64,000 nucleotides of DNA, taken from an uncultured bacterium (GTDB lineage Bacteria; Elusimicrobiota; Elusimicrobia; Elusimicrobiales; Elusimicrobiaceae). Position 1 is the first letter of the stretch. The number at the start of each line of letters is the position of its first letter. A program made the translations under genes and the position numbers. Shown one piece after another: positions 2-56,941 of the stretch. The DNA is taken from assembly GCA_949297775.1 (NCBI GenBank), contig CASFTM010000001.1:62001-126000 (forward strand), read 5' to 3'. The notes beneath the pieces were generated by a model. The model ran no database searches. It was not told the origin of the DNA and saw only the letters and a program-made list of their open reading frames with translations.

Positions 2-406
2 TCCCTCTTGCATATTACGATGGAGGATGAACGCCCCCCGCTGGAAAATCCATTAGTCGGGCCGGAAATATCCGCCCTGCTGGATGATTTTTTAGCCCGC
101 CGCCGGGCCTATAATTCCCAGCAAGTGCAAGCCGTGCAAACGCTCTTTGGCACCCCAGCCGCGCAGGAAGCCGTGCGGATTTTGCACACTGACGAAACCG
201 CCTCTTTTGCCAATGCCGCTACCTGCCAAACGCCCCGCGCCTTTGCCGCCAACCAGCAACGCATTGATGACCAAACAGAACAAGCCATGCTGGCTCTCTT
301 TAACCGCTATAAACGGGAAATCGGAAAACAAAAAGATGTTTCGCCTGAATGGAAAGCGTTTTTTAAACGGGTAGAAAATTATAAACGCGCCGCCGGACAG
401 AACTGA
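2..406 (+). CDS. Unknown protein, C-terminal part, cut by left edge
   Basis: An open frame runs in from the left edge without a stop and ends at 404-406, so this is probably the C-terminal part of a longer gene; a TTG at 8 or ATG at 20 could also be a start. The visible part of about 130 residues is hydrophilic and probably helical, rich in Glu, Arg, Gln and Ala, with no signal peptide, membrane segment or familiar motif. It is followed by a bidirectional hairpin terminator and faces the convergent rplT operon. Function not recognised; the reading frame is likely real because composition and codon use resemble the neighbours. Confidence 0.55.
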   Translation, partial: SLLHITMEDERPPLENPLVGPEISALLDDFLARRRAYNSQQVQAVQTLFGTPAAQEAVRILHTDETASFANAATCQTPRAFAANQQRIDDQTEQAMLALFNRYKREIGKQKDVSPEWKAFFKRVENYKRAAGQN

Positions 407-486
407 TTGCCCCCGCCAAAAGGCTCCCGCCGGCAGGCCATCCAATCCTCCGCCGATAGAAGCTCCCTTTTCCTCCGGATGCCAAC

Positions 487-514
487 AAAAACCCCGCTCT
501 TAGAGCGGGGTTTT
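487..514. terminator. Bidirectional intrinsic terminator
   Basis: A 9-bp perfect stem (CCCCGCTCT at 492-500, AGAGCGGGG at 502-510) is flanked by A-rich sequence on the left and TTTT on the right. It can end both the left-edge gene and the convergent infC-rpmI-rplT operon. Confidence 0.8.
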
Positions 515-533
515 ACTTGCAAAGCAGAAACGC

Positions 534-881
534 TTAGGCGGCTTTGACTACGTCCACCAATTTCTTGAAGGACACCGGGTCTTTAATCGCCATTTCGGAC
601 AACATCTTGCGGTTAAGCGTGATGTTGGCTTTGGCTAAGCCGCTGATGAATTTAGAGTAAGACAAGCCTTCCTCTCTCACCGCGGCGTTGATGCGGGTAA
701 TCCACAGCTGGCGGTAAGTGGTTTTTTTGTCTTTGCGGCCAACGTAAGCATGCACGCCGGATTTATCCAGCTGCTGGGTGGCCATGCGCAAGCGGCGGGA
801 TTTATCTCCGTAGTAGCCGCTGGCTCTTTTCAATACTTTTTTCTTTCTTGCGTGTCTGGGAACGCTGAATTTAATTCTCAT
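534..881 (-). CDS. rplT: 50S ribosomal protein L20
   Basis: L20 binds 23S rRNA and is needed early in large-subunit assembly. The 115-residue product has the usual family length, a very basic N-terminal extension (MRIKFSVPRHARKKKVLKRA) that threads into rRNA, and the globular C-terminal half with the family pattern around YRQLWITRINAA. It is the last gene of the infC-rpmI-rplT operon, 12 bases after rpmI. In E. coli and Bacillus this operon is autoregulated by L20 or through the infC leader; no leader structure is claimed here. Confidence 0.98.
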   Translation of the reverse strand: MRIKFSVPRHARKKKVLKRASGYYGDKSRRLRMATQQLDKSGVHAYVGRKDKKTTYRQLWITRINAAVREEGLSYSKFISGLAKANITLNRKMLSEMAIKDPVSFKKLVDVVKAA

Positions 882-893
882 GTTTCTAACCTC

Positions 894-1100
894 TTATTTG
901 GCCATCGGGAGATATTTTTCCAAAATCTTCCCTTTGTTGGACTCGGGCGTAATCACGCCGGTCTTTCTGGTTTCGTGCTTCCGGGAGGCAGAAACAGGCG
1001 TAAGCAAGTGTTTTCTGCCGGCTTTTCTGTGGGTGAATTTACCCGTGGCGGTTTTTCTGAAGCGTTTTTTGCCGCCGCTGTGGTTTTTCAATTTAGGCAT
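894..1100 (-). CDS. rpmI: 50S ribosomal protein L35
   Basis: A small, highly basic ribosomal protein of 68 residues beginning MPKLKNHSGGKKRF, matching the conserved L35 opening (MPKxKTxxGxxKRF) and close to the usual 64-66 residues. It lies in the middle of the infC-rpmI-rplT operon. The 101-base infC-rpmI spacer (1101-1201) is long for this operon and contains G+C-rich inverted segments, so it could hold a translational control structure, but I could not define one. Confidence 0.97.
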   Translation of the reverse strand: MPKLKNHSGGKKRFRKTATGKFTHRKAGRKHLLTPVSASRKHETRKTGVITPESNKGKILEKYLPMAK

Positions 1101-1201
1101 TTTTATAGTACCTCTGTTTAATTAGCCCTTTTTCCGAACAACCTGCGCCGGGAGCCGGTCAAGCCCCGCACGCAGTACACTAAAAAGGACCTAAAAATCG
1201 T

Positions 1202-1741
1202 TTAGTTTTTGGGCACAAACGTCATAGACATCCGGTTCCCCATAGACTGCAGTCCGCCGTCTACGTTGGCAATTTCTGCCAAGCGTTTGGCAGTATCGTT
1301 TAAAATCTGGATGCCGATATCCTTGTGCTGGTTTTCGCGGCCGTGGAACACCACTACGAAACGGACCATATCTTTCTTGCGCAAAAATTCTTCAATCTGG
1401 CGTATTTTAACGTCCAAATCGTGCGGAGCAATGCGCGATTTAATGCGCAGCTCTTTCAAGGTTACTTTGGCTTGTTTCTTTTTGGCTTCCGCCGCTTTCT
1501 TTCCCTGTTCGTAAACATACCGGTTGTAATCAAGTATTTTACAGACAGGAGGTTGGGCGTTGGGTGAAATTTCCACCAGGTCCAACTCTTGTTCTTTGGC
1601 CAGGGCGATGGCTTGCGCCACCGGCATGACCCCAATCATTGCGCCGTCGGAATTGATGACTCTCACTTCCGCAACGCGGATATTCTGGTTTCTGCGATAG
1701 AGATCTTTTTTGTATTCTCTTCTAGTATCGTATCTGGCCAT
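1202..1741 (-). CDS. infC: Translation initiation factor IF-3
   Basis: IF-3 binds the 30S subunit, prevents premature 50S joining and checks start-codon/initiator-tRNA pairing. The 179-residue product shows the N domain (NIRVAEVRVI...GVM...A), the lysine-rich interdomain helix around residues 80-95, and the C domain with KVTLKELRIK and the conserved RFVVVFHGRE block. The start is ATG at 1741; many bacteria use the rare AUU here for autoregulation, so that control is not evident. First gene of infC-rpmI-rplT. Confidence 0.97.
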   Translation of the reverse strand: MARYDTRREYKKDLYRRNQNIRVAEVRVINSDGAMIGVMPVAQAIALAKEQELDLVEISPNAQPPVCKILDYNRYVYEQGKKAAEAKKKQAKVTLKELRIKSRIAPHDLDVKIRQIEEFLRKKDMVRFVVVFHGRENQHKDIGIQILNDTAKRLAEIANVDGGLQSMGNRMSMTFVPKN

Positions 1742-1814
1742 TTAATTATTCTTTCAAAAAAATAGTTCCCCTATACAGGAACACATTTATTATACCAACT
1801 TATTCGAAAACGTG

Positions 1815-2240
1815 TCAATTCTCCTGAGGATTGGGGGCCGTATACAACAGGCGGCCTTGGTGCCAGCATTCCCACCCTTGCGGCAGGCGTTTTAACAGCC
1901 AGGAGTTTTGGGGAGCGGTCCAATAAGGGCCGTCCGGCGTAAAAGCACGCACCAAAAGCGGCGGGCGGGTTTTGACAGGTACAAACAACTCGGCCTGGGA
2001 TCCGTCTTTGGAAAGCACCACAAACGCCGCCAAATTTTTGTCCGTCCCATCCGCGGGAAATAAGGCAATTCCCTCTTCCCACAGCCGCACGCAAGACCCC
2101 TGCACTTCGCTCCAGGTGTATCCGGCTGACCCTATGCAGCCGTGCGCGTCGCGGTCGGCACCGACCAAATGTTGTTCAGGCACGGCGGAACAGGCTCCTA
2201 GCAAAAGCCCTGTCAACGAACAAATTAAAAATTTCTTCAT
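1815..2240 (-). CDS. Predicted lipoprotein of unknown function
   Basis: A 141-residue protein with a lipoprotein signal peptide: two Lys after Met, a hydrophobic stretch and the lipobox LLGAC with Cys17 as lipidation site. The mature part has paired Cys residues (in HGCIGS and GSCVRL) and is rich in Trp and Pro, suggesting a small disulfide-bonded periplasmic domain. No known domain recognised. It lies alone between infC and a DUF2807 gene, both on the same strand. Confidence 0.7.
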   Translation of the reverse strand: MKKFLICSLTGLLLGACSAVPEQHLVGADRDAHGCIGSAGYTWSEVQGSCVRLWEEGIALFPADGTDKNLAAFVVLSKDGSQAELFVPVKTRPPLLVRAFTPDGPYWTAPQNSWLLKRLPQGWECWHQGRLLYTAPNPQEN

Positions 2241-2292
2241 AGGACTATTATATTTCTTTTGAGTCCGTCTGCCCAGCCGGGACCGCCATAAA

Positions 2293-2316
2293 AAAGCCCC
2301 GCCGAAGCGGGGCTTT
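2293..2316 (-). terminator. Intrinsic terminator after DUF2807 gene
   Basis: A 10-bp stem (AAAGCCCCGC at 2293-2302, GCGGGGCTTT at 2307-2316) with a four-base loop lies four bases past the stop of the DUF2807 gene. A-rich sequence on the plus strand supplies the T-run on the minus strand. Confidence 0.8.
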
Positions 2317-2320
2317 AAAA

Positions 2321-3130
2321 TTAGTCGTCGTAATCGTCATCGCGGTCGCGGCGGATTTTTTTGGAGTTTCCATTCCGTTCAACCTTGCTCGGATATCCTC
2401 TGTATTCAATTTTTCCGCGCCCGTTAGCCGTAGCGTACAGGGCTTCTGTCGGGTTCACTTTAATACTCCCCGAAGCGTTGCCCGTAGCCGTTACGGTAGC
2501 GGCACGCAAGTCTTCGGCGTCCACATCACCGGAGCCGTTGTTGGTTAAAACAGCTTGCTGCACATCGCCGGACAAATCAATTTCGGCACGGTTGTGGGCC
2601 GTCGCTTCCACACGGTCCGCCTGTACGCGGCCCAGATCCACATCCGAGCGGTCCGCCGCTTCAATCGTCACAGAAGAGGCCTGAATATGATCCGCAGCAA
2701 TTTCGGCATCTCCCGCCGATTGCAGGGACAACTGATCCGCATGCAACGAGCCGCGCACTTCAAAATCGCCGTTCTGATGTACCGCAACAGACGCCAATTC
2801 CGGCGCGCTTACAGCTACTTGCAAATCCCGTTCACCGCGCACCCGAATCGGCTGTGTATAACCAATAATCAGCACGTCGTTTTCTACGCGCACATCAGCC
2901 AACCGGACCAGGTTTTCCGGGCCGCTCACATTCACGGCAATATTAGGCCGCTGCATAAAATCCACTTCCACATCGCCGCGGACTTCTACAGCGCTGAACG
3001 CGCCCAAGCCCTGCACCGCGCGGGAAGTATAGCGCCCCTGGCCGGAAATGGTTTTCATTTTTTGCGCGGCTGCCGGTACAGCCAGCGCCATGGCCAATAC
3101 GGCCGCTAAGATTGCTTTCTTGTGGTTCAT
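2321..3130 (-). CDS. Exported DUF2807 (head GIN domain) protein
   Basis: A 269-residue exported protein with a signal peptide ending at AAAQ. The body shows the GIN-domain/DUF2807 pattern of Bacteroidota-type putative adhesins: an opening like FSAVEVRGDVEVDF, then short strand repeats of alternating Asp/Ser/Val/Ala that should form a right-handed beta-helix. The tail is highly charged (KKIRRDRDDDYDD). ATG at 3130 is chosen over an upstream in-frame start because it follows a strong AAGGGGG ribosome site. Cellular role in this family is not established. Confidence 0.75.
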   Translation of the reverse strand: MNHKKAILAAVLAMALAVPAAAQKMKTISGQGRYTSRAVQGLGAFSAVEVRGDVEVDFMQRPNIAVNVSGPENLVRLADVRVENDVLIIGYTQPIRVRGERDLQVAVSAPELASVAVHQNGDFEVRGSLHADQLSLQSAGDAEIAADHIQASSVTIEAADRSDVDLGRVQADRVEATAHNRAEIDLSGDVQQAVLTNNGSGDVDAEDLRAATVTATGNASGSIKVNPTEALYATANGRGKIEYRGYPSKVERNGNSKKIRRDRDDDYDD

Positions 3131-3303
3131 AAATCCCCCTTGTTCTAAATTAAGCACGTATATAGTAGCACAAAAAATAAACGGGAAACCAGTATAAAAA
3201 ATTATTAGGGCTTATTTCAACACGGCAACCCTGCACGCAGCACCCAAATTTGCTAAAATTTATGTGGCTTTTATGACAATTTTTACGTTTTAAGGTGGCA
3301 ATT

Positions 3304-5708
<2,405 letters not shown>

Positions 5709-49522: not shown

Positions 49523-49558
49523 GCCCCGGCGCATATACACGCCGGGGCATTTGGTTTT
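49523..49558. terminator. Hairpin between Sel1 gene and protease operon
   Basis: An 8-bp stem (GCCCCGGC at 49523-49530, GCCGGGGC at 49541-49548) is followed on plus by ATTTGGTTTT. It lies between two convergent genes and probably ends both, though the T-tracts are imperfect. Confidence 0.6.
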
Positions 49559-49567
49559 ACGGGAAGG

Positions 49568-50758
49568 TTATAATAAAGCCGCAGAAATGACTTCTCTGGT
49601 TGCCAAATCCACCACCACCAGCCTTTTGCTGACGGGAACGTTAGATTCCGGGCCGTTTTTAGCAATCACAAATTCTATTTGCGCAGCATATTTGAGAGAA
49701 ATCAAATCTTCCAGGCGTTGGTAATCCACTTTCTTTTCTTGGTGCCACAAAGTCAGGCTGTTAAGGGTACGGTTGGAAACTTTGGTCTGTACAGACAGGA
49801 TGTATTCATCTATATTGATAGAGCCAATTTTCTTTCCCTGGAAGATTAAATCCTGCGGTTTGTTTTTTCCGTTTGCATAGGCCAATAATTCCTTCAAGAC
49901 GGAAACCGGCACGGCGTAACTTTCCCGGCGGGAGTCTGAACTGCCGCAATGAACCCCCACGACTTCGTTTTGTTCGTTTAACACCGGGCCGCCGCAGGCG
50001 CCGGAGCGGTTCCAAGAACCGAATTCCATAGAGGTAACCAGCCGGTTGGGTGTGTTTTCCTGCACCACCCGGTTGCGGACGATACGGAAATCTTTGGCAA
50101 AATAACCGTAGGAGCGGACCAGGCTGTTGAATTCCGGTTCTTCCGAAGCCAATGCCAGCGGCCGGACCAAGGGGACTATGTTTTCCGGCACTTCAAACAA
50201 CGCCACATCCGCCATGCCGGAGGACCCTTTGGCAATTATGTTCAGGGGGAAGTGTTTTTCTTTTCCGTTGGGCAGGCGGATGGTCGCCCGCCGCGGGTCC
50301 ATTAACCATTCCGCCACATGGGCCGCTGTCACCCCGACGATTTGTTTCTTGCCCTTCCAGTCGGTTTCTATAAAAAAGCCGGTGGCGGTGGAAGCGCCGG
50401 TCAGCCCGGGGGTGGTTTCTTCCAGGCGTACCACGCTTTGGAGCATTCGGGAATCAAACGCCGCTATTTTGTGGAGTATTCTGTTGTTTGCTTGCAAAGA
50501 AAGTGTACCTGCAGGCCACCGCTGAGAAAGGGGTTGTTCCCTTTTGGCGGCGGCTATACGTGCAAGATGAGTGGTCCGGGTGGCAAGGCCTTTTTGCTGA
50601 ACCGTGCGGAGGAAGTTCTTTCCTGGCTGGAGCCCGGCGGCCCGGACGGTTTGTTGCCCAAAGGCCTGGACAGCGTGAGTTACTTTTTTTTGAGCATATG
50701 CGCCGGGGGCGGCCAGTAAACAAATACAGACGACGGCAAAAAGTTTTTTTGCAGACAT
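49568..50758 (-). CDS. Exported trypsin-fold protease with Cys nucleophile, copy 4
   Basis: A 396-residue exported protein (signal peptide cut near AYAQ) with an Ala/Gln-rich linker, a chymotrypsin-fold protease domain (about 105-290) and a C-terminal domain. His147 (VTAAHVAEW), Asp184 (GMADVALFEV) and, in place of the catalytic Ser, Cys255 (SGACGGPVL) form the presumed triad; the GxSGGP motif of trypsins is GACGGP here. It starts on the base before the stop of copy 3 and is last in a four-gene minus-strand operon. Substrate unknown. Confidence 0.8.
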   Translation of the reverse strand: MSAKKLFAVVCICLLAAPGAYAQKKVTHAVQAFGQQTVRAAGLQPGKNFLRTVQQKGLATRTTHLARIAAAKREQPLSQRWPAGTLSLQANNRILHKIAAFDSRMLQSVVRLEETTPGLTGASTATGFFIETDWKGKKQIVGVTAAHVAEWLMDPRRATIRLPNGKEKHFPLNIIAKGSSGMADVALFEVPENIVPLVRPLALASEEPEFNSLVRSYGYFAKDFRIVRNRVVQENTPNRLVTSMEFGSWNRSGACGGPVLNEQNEVVGVHCGSSDSRRESYAVPVSVLKELLAYANGKNKPQDLIFQGKKIGSINIDEYILSVQTKVSNRTLNSLTLWHQEKKVDYQRLEDLISLKYAAQIEFVIAKNGPESNVPVSKRLVVVDLATREVISAALL

Positions 50759-51952
50759 TTATTTCGCCTCGGTCCGGGTGACGGTATGGGTTTGGCTGTT
50801 CCATTCGTACCAGTAGCGGCTGCGCTTGGAAGAGGAACGGTCCCCTTTGTGGATGATGATACGGAAAATATCCCCGGGTTCTATTTCAAAAAAACGTTCT
50901 AAATGAGCATAATCCATAAACGGATAAGCAGAGAAAGTTTTGTGCAGGCGGTCTTCGCGCAACTGTTGGATGGAGTGTATATTTTCATCCGGGTGCAGCA
51001 AGCCCAGCGTTTCTCCGGCAAAGCGGAGCGTTATTCCTCCGGAGGAGGGTTGCTGGCGGACTAAAATCCGGACCCATTCCACGGGCACTGCGTGGTTGAA
51101 CGGACTGATAGTAATGGAGCCGGTGGGAGAAATCATGGGGTACCAAGCGCTTTTTTGAGCGGTCTCAGGGGTGACTACACCGGTAAAAACGCCAATTACT
51201 TTACCGTTTCTGAGCAACGGCGACCCGCAATAACCGTTGCGGATAGGGTAATCCTGATAATTAGTTAGGATGCGATGGTCGCTGGCGAACAAAACATCAA
51301 TTTTGGGAAACCAGCTAAAAAATCCATGGGAAAAACCGGCCGATTGAATAGAAGAGTGTGCTTTGGGTAAGGTATAATCCGGTTCAAACGGGTGAATATA
51401 CGCCAAGGCTTCTTGCGGAATGCGAAACAGGGCAATATCCGCTCCGTGGACATTTCCTTCCCGCAGCGAATATACTTGGAAAAACTTTTCTTTCCCTTGT
51501 TCGTCCGTAACGGACAAAACGGGAGAGCGCCCGATATCGTCCAATACGTGGCGGGCCGTTACGCCCCAGGCGGTGCCGTCAATCATCACGGCAAAAGCAG
51601 AGCCTTTGCCGTGTGTTTTAGGGGTTTCCTGCAGGGTAAAAACGCCCTTTCGTATGGTGGTTGGCGCCGGCAGCAACGGGCGCGGCCCGGTGGAGGGGAG
51701 CTCTTGACTAAATAAAGGCGAAACAGCCGCTAAAGCCCGGTGCCTGGACAGCCCGGCTACCGAAGCTTTTATGAGGGTGGTACTCGGTTTTACCAGCCAC
51801 CGGCCCCAGGACGAACGAACTGATTTCTCTTCCAAGGAAGAGAGCTTTTGCAAAATTTTATCCAGCTGTTTTTGGGCATACGCCGGCTGGCCCCATCCTC
51901 CGGCGGCTACTAAAAAAAAGCTGCATAAAAATAAATAAAAGCAATGTTTCAT
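50759..51952 (-). CDS. Exported trypsin-fold protease with Cys nucleophile, copy 3
   Basis: A 397-residue paralogue of its neighbours with a signal peptide ending near AYAQ. The triad is His135 (VTARHVLDD), Asp172 (GADIALFRIP) and Cys242 (NGYCGSPLL), with H-D spacing 37 and D-C spacing 70, the same as in the other copies. The C-terminal domain (about 300-397) begins ITLRFAGETLGLLHPDENIHS, a motif recurring in the other copies. Four bases separate it from copy 2 and none from copy 4. Confidence 0.8.
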   Translation of the reverse strand: MKHCFYLFLCSFFLVAAGGWGQPAYAQKQLDKILQKLSSLEEKSVRSSWGRWLVKPSTTLIKASVAGLSRHRALAAVSPLFSQELPSTGPRPLLPAPTTIRKGVFTLQETPKTHGKGSAFAVMIDGTAWGVTARHVLDDIGRSPVLSVTDEQGKEKFFQVYSLREGNVHGADIALFRIPQEALAYIHPFEPDYTLPKAHSSIQSAGFSHGFFSWFPKIDVLFASDHRILTNYQDYPIRNGYCGSPLLRNGKVIGVFTGVVTPETAQKSAWYPMISPTGSITISPFNHAVPVEWVRILVRQQPSSGGITLRFAGETLGLLHPDENIHSIQQLREDRLHKTFSAYPFMDYAHLERFFEIEPGDIFRIIIHKGDRSSSKRSRYWYEWNSQTHTVTRTEAK

Positions 51953-51956
51953 AAAC

Positions 51957-53174
51957 TTAATTTACACGTGTTACGGTGCGGTTTTTTAAATTTACTAAAT
52001 ATCCATAGGTCTCTGTACGGTTTTTATTGATAACAATTTCCGCCTGTATGGCGTTTTCCAAATGGAACAGCGCGTGCAATTTTTCTAAAGCAAAGAAAGG
52101 ATTGCGCGGCAGTTTTACCAGCATGCCGTTTTGGTAACGTACACCGACACTTTCAATAAACTCATCCGGACGCAAATACCCCACCCGCAGTCCATTAAAC
52201 AGCATAATCCGCTTGGAGGAACCAGGGTTCCGGTATTGCTGCAGCAAATCCAGTGCGCGGGACAAGGGGACGATTTCGCTGATGCGCGATAAATTGGCAT
52301 GCGGCATTTTTTGCAGCTGCTTGCGGTAGCGGTACCAATCCAAATTCTCTTCTTTCGGCGAATAACCGCCGACTTCTATACCTACGGCTTCCCCGCGTTC
52401 GTTTAGCACCAAACTGCCGCAGAAACCGGGCTTTGGCTGGTTATAGAAAGGGAAAGAGGCCACCACCCTTTCACTGCCGGAATGAATCGTTTGCCGAATA
52501 GTCTTTTTATATTTCCCGGCGCTAAAACCAAAGGTGAACAGCAAATCTTTTGGCTTCGGCAGGGTGCGCGCCGGAATAACCGGCAACGCTACTTGGGCCA
52601 CTGCGGGCGGCAGTTTAATTAAGGCCGCATTGAGCCCAAATTTTCTTCCCGTCAGGACGATTTCTGCCGGGAAGGTATATTCTTTCCCGTCCGAATAAAA
52701 GGTAACATTTACTTCTGTCCCCATATAACGGACGGCGTGCGCGGCGGCAAAGCCCCATAGGACGGTGTCTTTGCCGTTTTTGTCAGCAAACACAAACCCG
52801 CTTGCTTTAAATGGATTTTTTACCCCACGGGCGGACACGGTAAAGACAAAATGTTTGGCATATTGTTCAAATGGGTGTAATTGCGGGGCCGCCACAAGAG
52901 GCTTTGTTGCCGTGGTTTCTTTTAGCATCGCCCGGGAAAACGCCAACGCCCTTTTGGCTGACATATCCGCCACGACAAACGGGCGTGAAAGCGGAATGGC
53001 TGTCAGGCGGCGGGTTTTTAGGATAACAGTCGGATTAATTGGGGATGGAATGATTTTTTGGAGCATAGCATCCCACGCCTGGGTGCCTGTTTTGCCTAAA
53101 AATTTTTGGGCGCAGGCGGGTTCCAGGCTTACCATACTGCATAATACAAGGAGCAAGGAAAGAAGTTTTTTCAT
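51957..53174 (-). CDS. Exported trypsin-fold protease with Cys nucleophile, copy 2 (catalytic Asp missing)
   Basis: A 405-residue paralogue with a signal peptide (cut near ACAQ). His146 (FAAAHAVRY) and Cys252 (PGFCGSLVL) are kept, but the Asp position is Asn182 (GLNAALIKL), so at most a Cys-His dyad remains. The Pro after the GS is Leu as well. The C-terminal domain starts IMLFNGLRVGYLRPDEFIES. Six bases downstream of copy 1. Either a dyad protease, as viral 3C-like enzymes can be, or an inactive partner. Confidence 0.8.
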   Translation of the reverse strand: MKKLLSLLLVLCSMVSLEPACAQKFLGKTGTQAWDAMLQKIIPSPINPTVILKTRRLTAIPLSRPFVVADMSAKRALAFSRAMLKETTATKPLVAAPQLHPFEQYAKHFVFTVSARGVKNPFKASGFVFADKNGKDTVLWGFAAAHAVRYMGTEVNVTFYSDGKEYTFPAEIVLTGRKFGLNAALIKLPPAVAQVALPVIPARTLPKPKDLLFTFGFSAGKYKKTIRQTIHSGSERVVASFPFYNQPKPGFCGSLVLNERGEAVGIEVGGYSPKEENLDWYRYRKQLQKMPHANLSRISEIVPLSRALDLLQQYRNPGSSKRIMLFNGLRVGYLRPDEFIESVGVRYQNGMLVKLPRNPFFALEKLHALFHLENAIQAEIVINKNRTETYGYLVNLKNRTVTRVN

Positions 53175-53180
53175 AAGCGA

Positions 53181-54338
53181 TTACCACCGAACGGGCTGAA
53201 AATATGAGGTATTTGTTTGTACATCGTAAAGTAAATACCGGAAAGGATGATTAATGTCAAACTCCATCGGGTTTTTCCCGCGGTCTTCCAGCAGAATGCG
53301 CAAAAAGCGCGTGTGCGGTTGCTGGAGCAACTGCTTGATAGTAGATTGGGTTAGGCGGTTTTCCGTATCATAGCGGGTAATGGTTCGCCCGTATCCGTCT
53401 ATGGCTTCCACGGAGTGGATGTGTTCAGTCGTTTGAATTTCGCCTAACGTGACCGAGCCTGCTACCAGCGGAATCTCGGCGGAACCTTCGTGTGCGGCTT
53501 TCAGCAGGTAGTGCAGCAGCCCAATGTTGGACGCATAGGCGGTGTTCTCGTCCCATATATTGCCGCACAGTACACCGGCGGCTTTCCCGTGGGAGTTGAG
53601 CAAAGGCGACCCGCACAAGCCAATACGCTGGTTGAAAGGAACATTAAATTCCGTGCGCAAAAAGCGCTGGTTATCTTTTTGTAAAAACTGTTTTCCGGTA
53701 TAGACCAGTTTGTGTTTGCAATAGCCGGCGGAAATCAACGCCTCGCCTAATTTGACAGGGCGGGACTCCAGTTCCAGCGGGGTAATTTCCGGCGGAAGCG
53801 GTTGGGTGATTTTTAATAAAGCGATATCCGATACCAGGTTCGGACCATACTGTACCACTTCGGCAGGGACGACAAATGGTTGCTCTCCGTTGTAAAAAAT
53901 AAGGTTTAAATTTTTGCCCATTCCTTTGGCAATGTGCCCGGCGGTGGCGCCCCATACTTCTTGCTGCCCGTTATGCTGGACGGTAAAAACGAAAGCGGTG
54001 GCTGAAGGCTGTTGGCTTTCGGGCAGATTGGCTAACAAGGCGGACTGCAGTTTGGCAACGGACAGGCGGATGTCCTGCCCGGCGCGTTGGCGTGCGGCCC
54101 GCGCGGCGGTTTGGAGCGTTTGGTTGACAAGTGCGGGCAGTCGGGAAGTGGCTGCGTGGCTGGCTGCCGCGGGAAGCATCCGTTGCGGAACCTGCCGGAG
54201 GGCGGCCTTTGCGGCGGCTGCCTTGGCGGCCTGCGTTACCGGTAATTTTTGGGCATAAGCGTTCCCGGCGGGAATCATTCCCGCCGAAAGGGTACAAACA
54301 AAAGGAAAAATAAAAAATATAGAACGCTTCATATACAT
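53181..54338 (-). CDS. Exported trypsin-fold protease with Cys nucleophile, copy 1
   Basis: A 385-residue paralogue (counted from ATG 54338; ATG 54332, giving MKRS, is an alternative). Signal peptide ends near AYAQ, then an Ala/Arg/Gln-rich linker (residues 31-100). The triad is His135 (ATAGHIAKG), Asp171 (SDIALLKI) and Cys242 (GLCGSPLL). First gene of the operon; no Shine-Dalgarno site precedes either ATG. An unusual element with three GGCC cores and GACCCTGG lies 26-32 bases upstream. Confidence 0.8.
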   Translation of the reverse strand: MYMKRSIFFIFPFVCTLSAGMIPAGNAYAQKLPVTQAAKAAAAKAALRQVPQRMLPAAASHAATSRLPALVNQTLQTAARAARQRAGQDIRLSVAKLQSALLANLPESQQPSATAFVFTVQHNGQQEVWGATAGHIAKGMGKNLNLIFYNGEQPFVVPAEVVQYGPNLVSDIALLKITQPLPPEITPLELESRPVKLGEALISAGYCKHKLVYTGKQFLQKDNQRFLRTEFNVPFNQRIGLCGSPLLNSHGKAAGVLCGNIWDENTAYASNIGLLHYLLKAAHEGSAEIPLVAGSVTLGEIQTTEHIHSVEAIDGYGRTITRYDTENRLTQSTIKQLLQQPHTRFLRILLEDRGKNPMEFDINHPFRYLLYDVQTNTSYFQPVRW

Positions 54339-54415: not shown

Positions 54416-54448
54416 AAAATAAAACCCCGCGGCATCGGGCCGCGGGGG
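54416..54448 (-). terminator. Intrinsic terminator after glyA
   Basis: An 8-bp perfect stem (CCCCGCGG at 54425-54432, CCGCGGGG at 54440-54447) has an A-rich run on its left, read as T on the minus strand after the glyA stop. Confidence 0.85.
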
Positions 54449-55864: not shown

Positions 55865-56941
55865 ATGGCTAAACTTACCAAAAAAGACTTTCTCAAAGAC
55901 ACCATCAAACACATTGACCTGAAAAAATACAATGTGGTTCCTATGGTGGAAGCCTTTGGGAGCATGGCCTATGCGTCCCGCGAAGTGGCCAGAGCGAGCA
56001 AAATCTATAATATGATGCTTTCCGACAAGAAATGCTCTGTCATTTTGTGCATCGCGGGGTCGCTCGTATCCGCCGGCCTGAAAAAAGTAGTGGTGGATAT
56101 GATCCAAAACAATATGGTAGACGCGATCGTTTCCAACGGCGCCAACATCGTGGACCAGGACTTCTTTGAAGCGCTGGGCTACAAACACTACATCGGCACC
56201 CCCTATAACGCCGACGACAATTTGCTGCGCGACCTGCATATTGACCGCATCTACGACACCTACATTGACGAAGACCAGCTCAAAGAATGCGACGAAACCG
56301 TCCACAAAATCTGCAACTCCTTGGAGCCCCGCCCCTACTCTTCCCGCGAATTTATTTGGGAAATGGGCAAATGGCTGGAGAAAAAAGGCAAAGGCAAAGA
56401 TTCCATCGTTTATAACGCTTACAAATACGGCGTGCCCGTGTTTGTGCCGGCGTTCTCCGACTGCTCGGCTGGTTTCGGTTTTGTAGCCCACCAGACCGAA
56501 CATCCGGAAGCCCATGTATCTATTGACAGCGCCAAAGATTTCTTGGAGCTGACCAAAATCAAAATCAAAGCCAAAGAAACCGGACTGATGATGTTCTCCG
56601 GTGGCGTACCGAAAAACTTTGCGCAGGATACCGTCGTGGCGGCTGAAATCTTGGGCGCCGACGCTCCGATGCACAAATACGCCGTACAAATTACCGTAGC
56701 CGACGTGCGCGACGGCGCGCTCTCCGGCTCCACCCTCAAAGAAGCTTCTTCTTGGGGTAAAGTTTCCACCGCGCTGGAACAGATGGTTTACGGGGAATGC
56801 ACGACGCTTATTCCGCTCATCATCGGTTACGGCTATCACAAAGGCGCGTGGAAAAAACGCAAAGCCGCTAACTACGTCAAATTCCTGCAGGATGAAGATG
56901 CCAAAGTGGCTGCGCTGAAAGCCAAAAAAGCGAAAAAATAA
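55865..56941 (+). CDS. Deoxyhypusine-synthase-family protein
   Basis: A 358-residue NAD-dependent polyamine-modifying enzyme of the deoxyhypusine synthase (DHS) fold. The catalytic Lys is Lys299 in SSWGKVSTAL, aligned by eye with Lys329 of human DHS. Asn251 (GGVPKNF) sits where the human enzyme has His288 next to spermidine. Bacteria have no eIF5A, so bacterial members act on free polyamines (homospermidine-type or agmatine-coupling reactions have been described). The arginine decarboxylase/agmatinase pair at 10.9 kb can supply agmatine or putrescine. Confidence 0.85.
   Translation: MAKLTKKDFLKDTIKHIDLKKYNVVPMVEAFGSMAYASREVARASKIYNMMLSDKKCSVILCIAGSLVSAGLKKVVVDMIQNNMVDAIVSNGANIVDQDFFEALGYKHYIGTPYNADDNLLRDLHIDRIYDTYIDEDQLKECDETVHKICNSLEPRPYSSREFIWEMGKWLEKKGKGKDSIVYNAYKYGVPVFVPAFSDCSAGFGFVAHQTEHPEAHVSIDSAKDFLELTKIKIKAKETGLMMFSGGVPKNFAQDTVVAAEILGADAPMHKYAVQITVADVRDGALSGSTLKEASSWGKVSTALEQMVYGECTTLIPLIIGYGYHKGAWKKRKAANYVKFLQDEDAKVAALKAKKAKK

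What the first reader, a model, noticed from the sequence alone, without database searches (positions are those of the whole stretch)
49568..54338. Operon of four exported trypsin-fold proteases, all with Cys in place of the catalytic Ser
Four tandem paralogues (gaps of 6, 4 and 0 bases) have signal peptides and the chymotrypsin-fold His and Asp motifs. At the nucleophile position each has G-x-C-G-[GS] instead of G-x-S-G-G. The Cys residues are 242, 252, 242 and 255, and the H-to-D (36-37) and D-to-C (70-71) spacings are nearly constant. Cys nucleophiles in this fold are best known from viral 3C/3C-like proteases and are rarely described in bacteria. The uniform replacement suggests a selected cysteine-protease family rather than decay.
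Basis: partly seen in the sequence, partly recalled or inferred. Interest (0 to 1): 0.8.

Follow-up and report, generated by a model that had tools for sequence, protein, structure and literature searches.

The report
Bacterial trypsin-fold proteases using cysteine
A gut bacterium of the little-known phylum Elusimicrobiota carries a whole, fast-evolving family of exported trypsin-like proteases whose cutting residue is cysteine instead of serine, a swap that the classification literature I found records only for RNA viruses; activity has not been tested.

Summary
Four tandem exported trypsin-fold proteins (window 54338-49568, minus strand; gaps 6, 4 and 0 bases) have G-x-C-G-[GS] at the nucleophile position. 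Protein 3 (51957-53174) has Asn182, not Asp, so only three of four have a full triad.
The family is larger than reported. This genome holds nine members, all with Cys. Homologues occur in 47 of 66 genomes of the genus, up to 13 per genome. Among 126 distinct homologues, Cys is present in 121 and Ser in none. Of the five without Cys, three also lost His. The four-gene order is kept in many species, always next to glyA.
The predicted structure has an HtrA-like fold, with Cys255 at about the position of the catalytic Ser. About half of the members have no other Cys in the mature protein. The genome has no detectable DsbB or VKOR.
The proteases are 27-62% identical to their window counterparts where neighbours are 62-100%, yet remain under purifying selection (dN/dS about 0.2). 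90 of 126 carry a His at the position of the V8 S1 His.
Best reading: active exported PA-clan cysteine proteases, a new bacterial variant of a known kind. Activity and substrates are untested.

The parts
53181..54338 (-). P4 (P0004, 385 aa), first gene of the operon: exported trypsin-fold protein, His135-Asp171-Cys242 (GLCGS)
   Evidence: signal sequence ends AYA-QK
51957..53174 (-). P3 (P0003, 405 aa): same family, His146-Asn182-Cys252 (GFCGS); acid is Asn; Cys and/or His lost in some species
50759..51952 (-). P2 (P0002, 397 aa): His135-Asp172-Cys242 (GYCGS), Phe at the S1-His position
49568..50758 (-). P1 (P0001, 396 aa): His147-Asp184-Cys255 (GACGG), S1-type His270; modelled structure m7438e913b930
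53613..53615 (-). Codon TGC of the predicted nucleophile Cys242 of P4
52419..52421 (-). Codon TGC of the predicted nucleophile Cys252 of P3
52629..52631 (-). Codon AAT of Asn182 of P3 at the catalytic Asp position
   Evidence: shared by most orthologues
51227..51229 (-). Codon TGC of the predicted nucleophile Cys242 of P2
49994..49996 (-). Codon TGC of the predicted nucleophile Cys255 of P1
49571..49870 (-). C-terminal ~100-aa all-beta domain of P1 (residues 297-396), one in each member, with the nearly invariant Glu318; no clear match among solved structures
54425..54447 (-). Terminator-like stem-loop after glyA, which separates the operon from the upstream gene
   Evidence: 9 G-C pairs, then TTTTATTTTA; pattern match only
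49523..49548 (.). Palindromic terminator-like stem-loop between the operon and the convergent Sel1-repeat gene
   Evidence: pattern match only

Best explanation
The four genes encode exported endopeptidases of the chymotrypsin (PA) fold in which a cysteine thiol, activated by His (and Asp in three of the four), does the job that Ser does in HtrA and V8 proteases. Each protein is made with a signal peptide, crosses the inner membrane, and carries a variable N-terminal stretch, the two-barrel protease domain and a C-terminal beta domain of unknown fold. P1 and most of the family carry the His that sets Glu/Gln preference in V8-type and 3C proteases. P2 (Phe), P3 (Glu) and P4 (Leu) differ there, so the four enzymes should cut at different residues. 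P3, with Asn for Asp, is either a Cys-His dyad enzyme or is drifting into a non-catalytic partner. The family has multiplied in tandem arrays and changes much faster than its neighbours, so its targets are probably extracellular proteins that vary between hosts or communities. Shown here: gene structure, signal sequences (by inspection), fold (predicted model), residue conservation, the linked loss of Cys and His, rate of evolution, synteny. Inferred: catalysis, cleavage preference, cellular location after export, targets.
For: Cys in 121 of 126 homologues, Ser in none; His in 121 of 124 that cover the site; Asp in 114, Asn in 11; of five proteins without Cys, three lack His, while no protein that keeps Cys lacks His where the site is covered. 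52 of 110 Cys-bearing members have that Cys as their only Cys after residue 25, so it cannot be half of an internal disulfide. No DsbB or VKOR was found in the genome, which fits a free exported thiol. AlphaFold2 model with pLDDT mostly above 90 from residue 100 on; VIA Z about 22 to HtrA/Deg/MarP protease domains; aligned ranges put Cys255 at or within a residue or two of the Ser named in the S328A (6z0e) and Ser343Ala (3lt3) titles. A profile aligns GxCG with the catalytic GxSG of V8 and also matches 3C proteases at the same motif. Purifying selection in orthologues, dN/dS 0.14-0.25 against 0.01-0.11 in neighbours. Gene order kept between species, next to glyA. A 5734-aa ORF of the sister genus has six Cys in all, four of them in GxCGS sites.
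Against: No activity has been measured. A conserved catalytic-looking site can also serve acyl transfer or thioester chemistry. P3 lacks the Asp and degenerates in some species. Two orthologous members in other species have Gln/Trp at the His/Cys positions. Three of four window proteins score just under the Pfam cut-off. The dN/dS values are simple pairwise counts, and several dS values are near saturation.
Confidence: 0.7

Rival explanations
1. General digestive proteases: the arrays simply break down dietary or host protein so that an amino-acid-fermenting gut bacterium can feed. The enzymes are active Cys proteases, but the diversity only widens the diet. (This rival concerns the role, not the chemistry.)
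For: Up to 13 members per genome, export signals, varied residue at the S1-His position. All relatives seen are Elusimicrobiota or unclassified; the named ones are metagenome-assembled genomes.
Against: Family absent from some nearly complete genomes of the same genus (G025, G055). The unusually fast change at a fixed locus is not needed for bulk digestion.
Confidence: 0.4
2. Non-catalytic or partly catalytic binding proteins: the fold is kept for binding, with the Cys as a metal or adduct site, as in repurposed HtrA homologues such as MamO.
For: Several members have lost catalytic residues. P3 has Asn instead of Asp in most of its orthologues. MamO is a published case of a repurposed trypsin-like protein (PMC4794232, listed).
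Against: 109 of 126 keep the complete His-Asp-Cys set, with GxCG around it. Cys is not lost independently of His except in two P3-type proteins.
Confidence: 0.15
3. HtrA-type quality-control proteases of the periplasm that happen to use Cys.
For: Closest solved folds are HtrA/Deg protease domains.
Against: The genome already has ordinary strong Trypsin_2 proteins on contigs C23 and C2, the latter read as a Ser form. No PDZ domain is found; the C-terminal domain matches nothing clearly. Housekeeping proteases do not normally diverge to 27-62% where neighbours stay at 62-100%.
Confidence: 0.15
4. Decaying Ser proteases in which Cys is an accidental first step.
For: Ser and Cys codons differ by one base; some members are clearly degraded.
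Against: No Ser in 126 homologues, purifying selection, and the same residue across deep subfamilies of a tree in which Ser forms fall on one side of a branch with support 79.
Confidence: 0.03

Closest known systems
HtrA/Deg proteases (MEROPS S1C), including HtrA1, DegP/Q/S, plant Deg1/2/9, and MarP (Rv3671c)
   Same: Two-barrel protease fold (VIA Z about 21-22.5, rmsd 2.3-3.6 over 170-197 residues); His-Asp-nucleophile order; exported bacterial members
   Different: Cys instead of Ser; 12-24% identity; no PDZ domain found; large fast-evolving paralogue arrays
Glutamyl endopeptidases, V8 and Spl proteases (MEROPS S1B)
   Same: Best sequence-level matches around the nucleophile and the following G-[VI]-H-x-G with the S1 His; secreted bacterial enzymes
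   Different: Cys instead of Ser; added C-terminal domain; the His is replaced by Phe, Glu or Leu in P2, P3 and P4
Viral 3C and 3C-like cysteine proteases (MEROPS C3, C30, C37 and others)
   Same: GxCG nucleophile motif in the same fold; S1 His in most members; His-Cys dyads are tolerated there (PMC6524800), as P3 would need; profile matches at E about 0.001
   Different: Bacterial, exported, in operons with signal peptides; nearest folds are bacterial HtrA proteases; no relative found in phage or viral collections
Trypsin-like proteases of anti-phage systems (retron type XI RT-protease, Avs1b, nuclease-protease pairs of PMC12799240)
   Same: P1 matches the protease part of the RT-Protease_XI models (E 2e-11)
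   Different: Exported stand-alone proteins; no reverse transcriptase or nuclease beside them; the match only shows a shared domain

Membership tests
PA-clan trypsin-like peptidases (Pfam Trypsin_2, PF13365) | Match to the domain profile over its full length | tested here: met
   P1 36.0 bits over the 27.6 cut-off, full length; P2-P4 23.5-27.3 bits, full or nearly full length but just under the cut-off
PA-clan trypsin-like peptidases (Pfam Trypsin_2, PF13365) | Double beta-barrel chymotrypsin fold | tested here: met
   Model of P1, VIA Z 22.5 to HtrA1; P2-P4 not modelled
PA-clan trypsin-like peptidases (Pfam Trypsin_2, PF13365) | His-Asp-nucleophile triad | tested here: inconclusive
   Met for P1, P2 and P4; P3 has His-Asn-Cys
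PA-clan cysteine peptidases (MEROPS C families of clan PA) | Cys at the nucleophile position, with or without the acid | tested here: met
   All four; 121 of 126 homologues
PA-clan cysteine peptidases (MEROPS C families of clan PA) | Encoded by positive-strand RNA viruses (all such families in 2019 per PMC6524800) | tested here: not met
   Bacterial chromosome with conserved synteny; no match in viral or phage collections
PA-clan cysteine peptidases (MEROPS C families of clan PA) | Cys-dependent proteolysis | not testable with these tools
   Needs purified protein
HtrA/DegP (S1C) | Catalytic Ser in GNSGG | tested here: not met
   GxCG[GS]
HtrA/DegP (S1C) | C-terminal PDZ domain(s) | tested here: inconclusive
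   No PDZ profile hit; the C-terminal model has no clear structural match, best Z 4.9 to other folds
Glutamyl endopeptidase (S1B) | S1 His after the nucleophile (G-x-H-x-G) | tested here: inconclusive
   Present in P1 and 90 of 126 homologues, absent in P2, P3 and P4
Glutamyl endopeptidase (S1B) | Catalytic Ser | tested here: not met
   Cys

The most novel reading that the evidence does not exclude
A cellular lineage of PA-clan cysteine proteases: in gut Elusimicrobiota a Ser-to-Cys switch became fixed, independently of RNA viruses, in an exported, fast-diversifying family that includes 3C/V8-like Glu/Gln-preferring members.
Probability: 0.55. Interest if true: 0.75.

Novelty: new variant of a known kind. 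Interest (0 to 1): 0.62.

Why it matters
The exchange of Ser for Cys in the chymotrypsin fold is a classic question of enzyme evolution, and the 2019 classification I read (PMC6524800) lists the Cys forms only from positive-strand RNA viruses. A bacterial family with at least 121 natural Cys members, dyad and triad versions and secondarily dead copies would let the switch be studied outside viruses. It also marks a candidate set of secreted proteases in an animal-gut bacterium about which little is known.

Tried and rejected
Phage, plasmid or viral origin: no relative in viral contigs, phages or plasmids. PDZ or another known fold for the C-terminal domain: modelled alone, no Foldseek hit below E 0.4 and best VIA Z 4.9, so no assignment. 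Decay: rejected. A survey of Cys forms in other phyla could not be run: the search accepts only genome handles as centre, and all those I had are of this phylum; the one genome-contig scan used P1-specific patterns. It returned only Elusimicrobiota or unclassified MAGs; several of these are contigs already seen in the same genus. Searching with all nine paralogues failed for lack of a conserved stretch. Paper searches for bacterial PA-clan cysteine proteases found none, in a library that lacks most subscription journals. The retron paper that would tell the nucleophile of type XI proteases is not held. The tree is a quick one with weak deep support, so one or two origins of Cys cannot be told apart.

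Full report
WHAT IS THERE. The window lies at C1:62001-126000 of a 1.69-Mb genome in 32 contigs, 97% complete. Four ORFs run on the minus strand from 54338 to 49568, with gaps of 6, 4 and 0 bases. A strong terminator-like hairpin after glyA lies upstream (54447-54425), and another hairpin lies between the operon and the convergent Sel1-repeat gene (49523-49548) (pattern matches only). All four have an N-terminal hydrophobic segment ending in A-x-A-Q-K, a Trypsin_2 match and G-x-C-G-[GS] at the nucleophile position, Cys 242, 252, 242 and 255. It is Asn in seven of the nine orthologues aligned with it; the other two (L090, L093) have Asp but have lost the Cys.

A GENUS-WIDE FAMILY. The same genome has a second array of four on contig C21 (L014) and a single copy on C8 (L015), all with Cys. 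The other Trypsin_2 proteins of the genome that could be read are Ser types: GNSGG on C6, GMSGS on C16, and a Ser form on C2. In a search of 341 Elusimicrobiota genomes the profile is strong in this genus (47 of 66 genomes at E 0.001 or better) and its sister genus, and only marginal elsewhere. Fully scored genomes of the genus hold 0 to 13 members. I extracted 113 members from 42 loci plus the window and, with nine named loci from a second collection, reached 126 distinct proteins. At the nucleophile position 121 have Cys, 2 Trp, 1 His, 1 Ala, 1 Tyr and none Ser. The three proteins that lost His are all among the five that lost Cys (Fisher P 3e-5, not corrected for relatedness; two of them are orthologues). 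109 keep His-Asp-Cys, 9 are His-Asn-Cys.

STRUCTURE AND SITE. The AlphaFold2 model of P1 (35-sequence alignment) has mean pLDDT 84, above 90 in most of the protease and C-terminal domains. Foldseek and VIA give HtrA/Deg/MarP protease domains, Z about 22. From the aligned ranges, Cys255 falls at or within a residue or two of Ser328 of HtrA1 and Ser343 of MarP, the residues named in the titles of the S328A and Ser343Ala entries. This is an inference from ranges; no residue-level overlay or His-Cys distance was available. A profile of the family aligns its GxCG with the GxSG of V8 protease and its G-[VI]-H-x-G with V8's G-I-H-W-G, and it also matches enterovirus-type 3C proteases around the same motif, all at E about 0.001. 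The His after the nucleophile is present in 90 of 126; it is Phe in P2, Glu in P3 and Leu in P4 (alignment). That this His sets Glu/Gln preference is established knowledge of V8 and 3C proteases, not tested here. In 52 of 110 members the catalytic Cys is the only Cys after residue 25, and the genome has no detectable DsbB or VKOR, so a free exported thiol is plausible.

C-TERMINAL DOMAIN. Each member ends with about 100 residues of beta structure with a nearly invariant Glu (Glu318 of P1). Modelled alone it is confident (pLDDT 92) but has no clear match in the PDB. It may hold or select substrates; that is a guess.

EVOLUTION. The operon sits at one fixed place, beside glyA and a block with a Sel1-repeat gene, an SPFH gene and ATP synthase genes, across the genus. 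Compared with the window, neighbours are 62-100% identical (glyA 91-97%, an exported neighbour 81-92%), while P1 is 37-44%, P2 49-59%, P3 28-57% and P4 27-62%; the lowest P3 and P4 values may be paralogues matched where the orthologue is missing. Between three closer species dN/dS is 0.14-0.25 for the proteases and 0.01-0.11 for the neighbours: constrained, but about four times less so. A quick tree puts all Ser forms on one side of a branch (support 79) and the main Cys family on the other, with a second Cys group (GTCG) from giant proteins placed uncertainly.

SISTER GENUS. In genomes G077-G079 the domain occurs inside very large ORFs (1077 to 5734 aa), often several per protein, nearly all with Cys. 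One 5734-aa ORF has six Cys, four of them in GxCGS. A distant genome (G297) has one in a 3451-aa ORF. A Ser form sits in a large ORF of G090 (GFSGG). Pfam finds little else in these giants apart from pseudomurein-binding repeats in one and a phosphatase-like match in another.

COMPARISON WITH WHAT IS KNOWN. [quoted passage not shown] I found no paper on bacterial PA-clan cysteine proteases, but the library is incomplete and databases outside this phylum could not be surveyed. So: it works like a viral Cys protease in its nucleophile, is a bacterial PA-clan protein by descent and fold, and does not meet the Ser criterion of the HtrA or V8 families.

VERDICT. A real, selected, bacterial Cys variant of the trypsin fold; active proteases are likely (0.7), role and targets open. 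P3 should be treated as doubtful.

Noticed in passing
L126:1990-19191 (-), L125:2-10660 (+), L082:3663-7775 (+), L127:960-4190 (+), L128:2-3322 (+): Giant ORFs of 1077-5734 aa in the sister genus carry one to five of these protease domains, mostly with Cys; most of their length has no Pfam match, one has pseudomurein-binding repeats.
   Followed up: partly
L128, domains at residues 467-789 and 947-1032 of the ORF at 2-3322: One large ORF carries both a Cys-type (GTCGS) and a Ser-type (GSSGS) trypsin domain side by side.
   Followed up: no
window 49571-49870 and equivalent parts of the family: C-terminal all-beta domain of about 100 aa, confidently modelled, with no clear match among solved structures and one nearly invariant Glu.
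   Followed up: partly
window 55865-56941: Deoxyhypusine-synthase-type protein (PF01916), 97-100% identical across species of the genus and so among the most conserved genes of the block; less usual in bacteria (from memory).
   Followed up: no
L014:3408-4286 (-): Exported 292-aa protein near the second array, no Pfam hit; its R-G and S-L-S-S-S motifs recall ADP-ribosyltransferases by eye only.
   Followed up: partly
P0001, residues 119-292 (window 49883-50404): Closest defence-library match is the protease part of type XI retron RT-protease models (E 2e-11); whether those use Ser or Cys was not determined.
   Followed up: partly
L069:7032-8159, L070:5905-7032, L064:8990-10207: Family members with His and Cys both replaced (Gln/Trp or Ser/His), apparent pseudo-proteases inside otherwise normal arrays.
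   Followed up: partly
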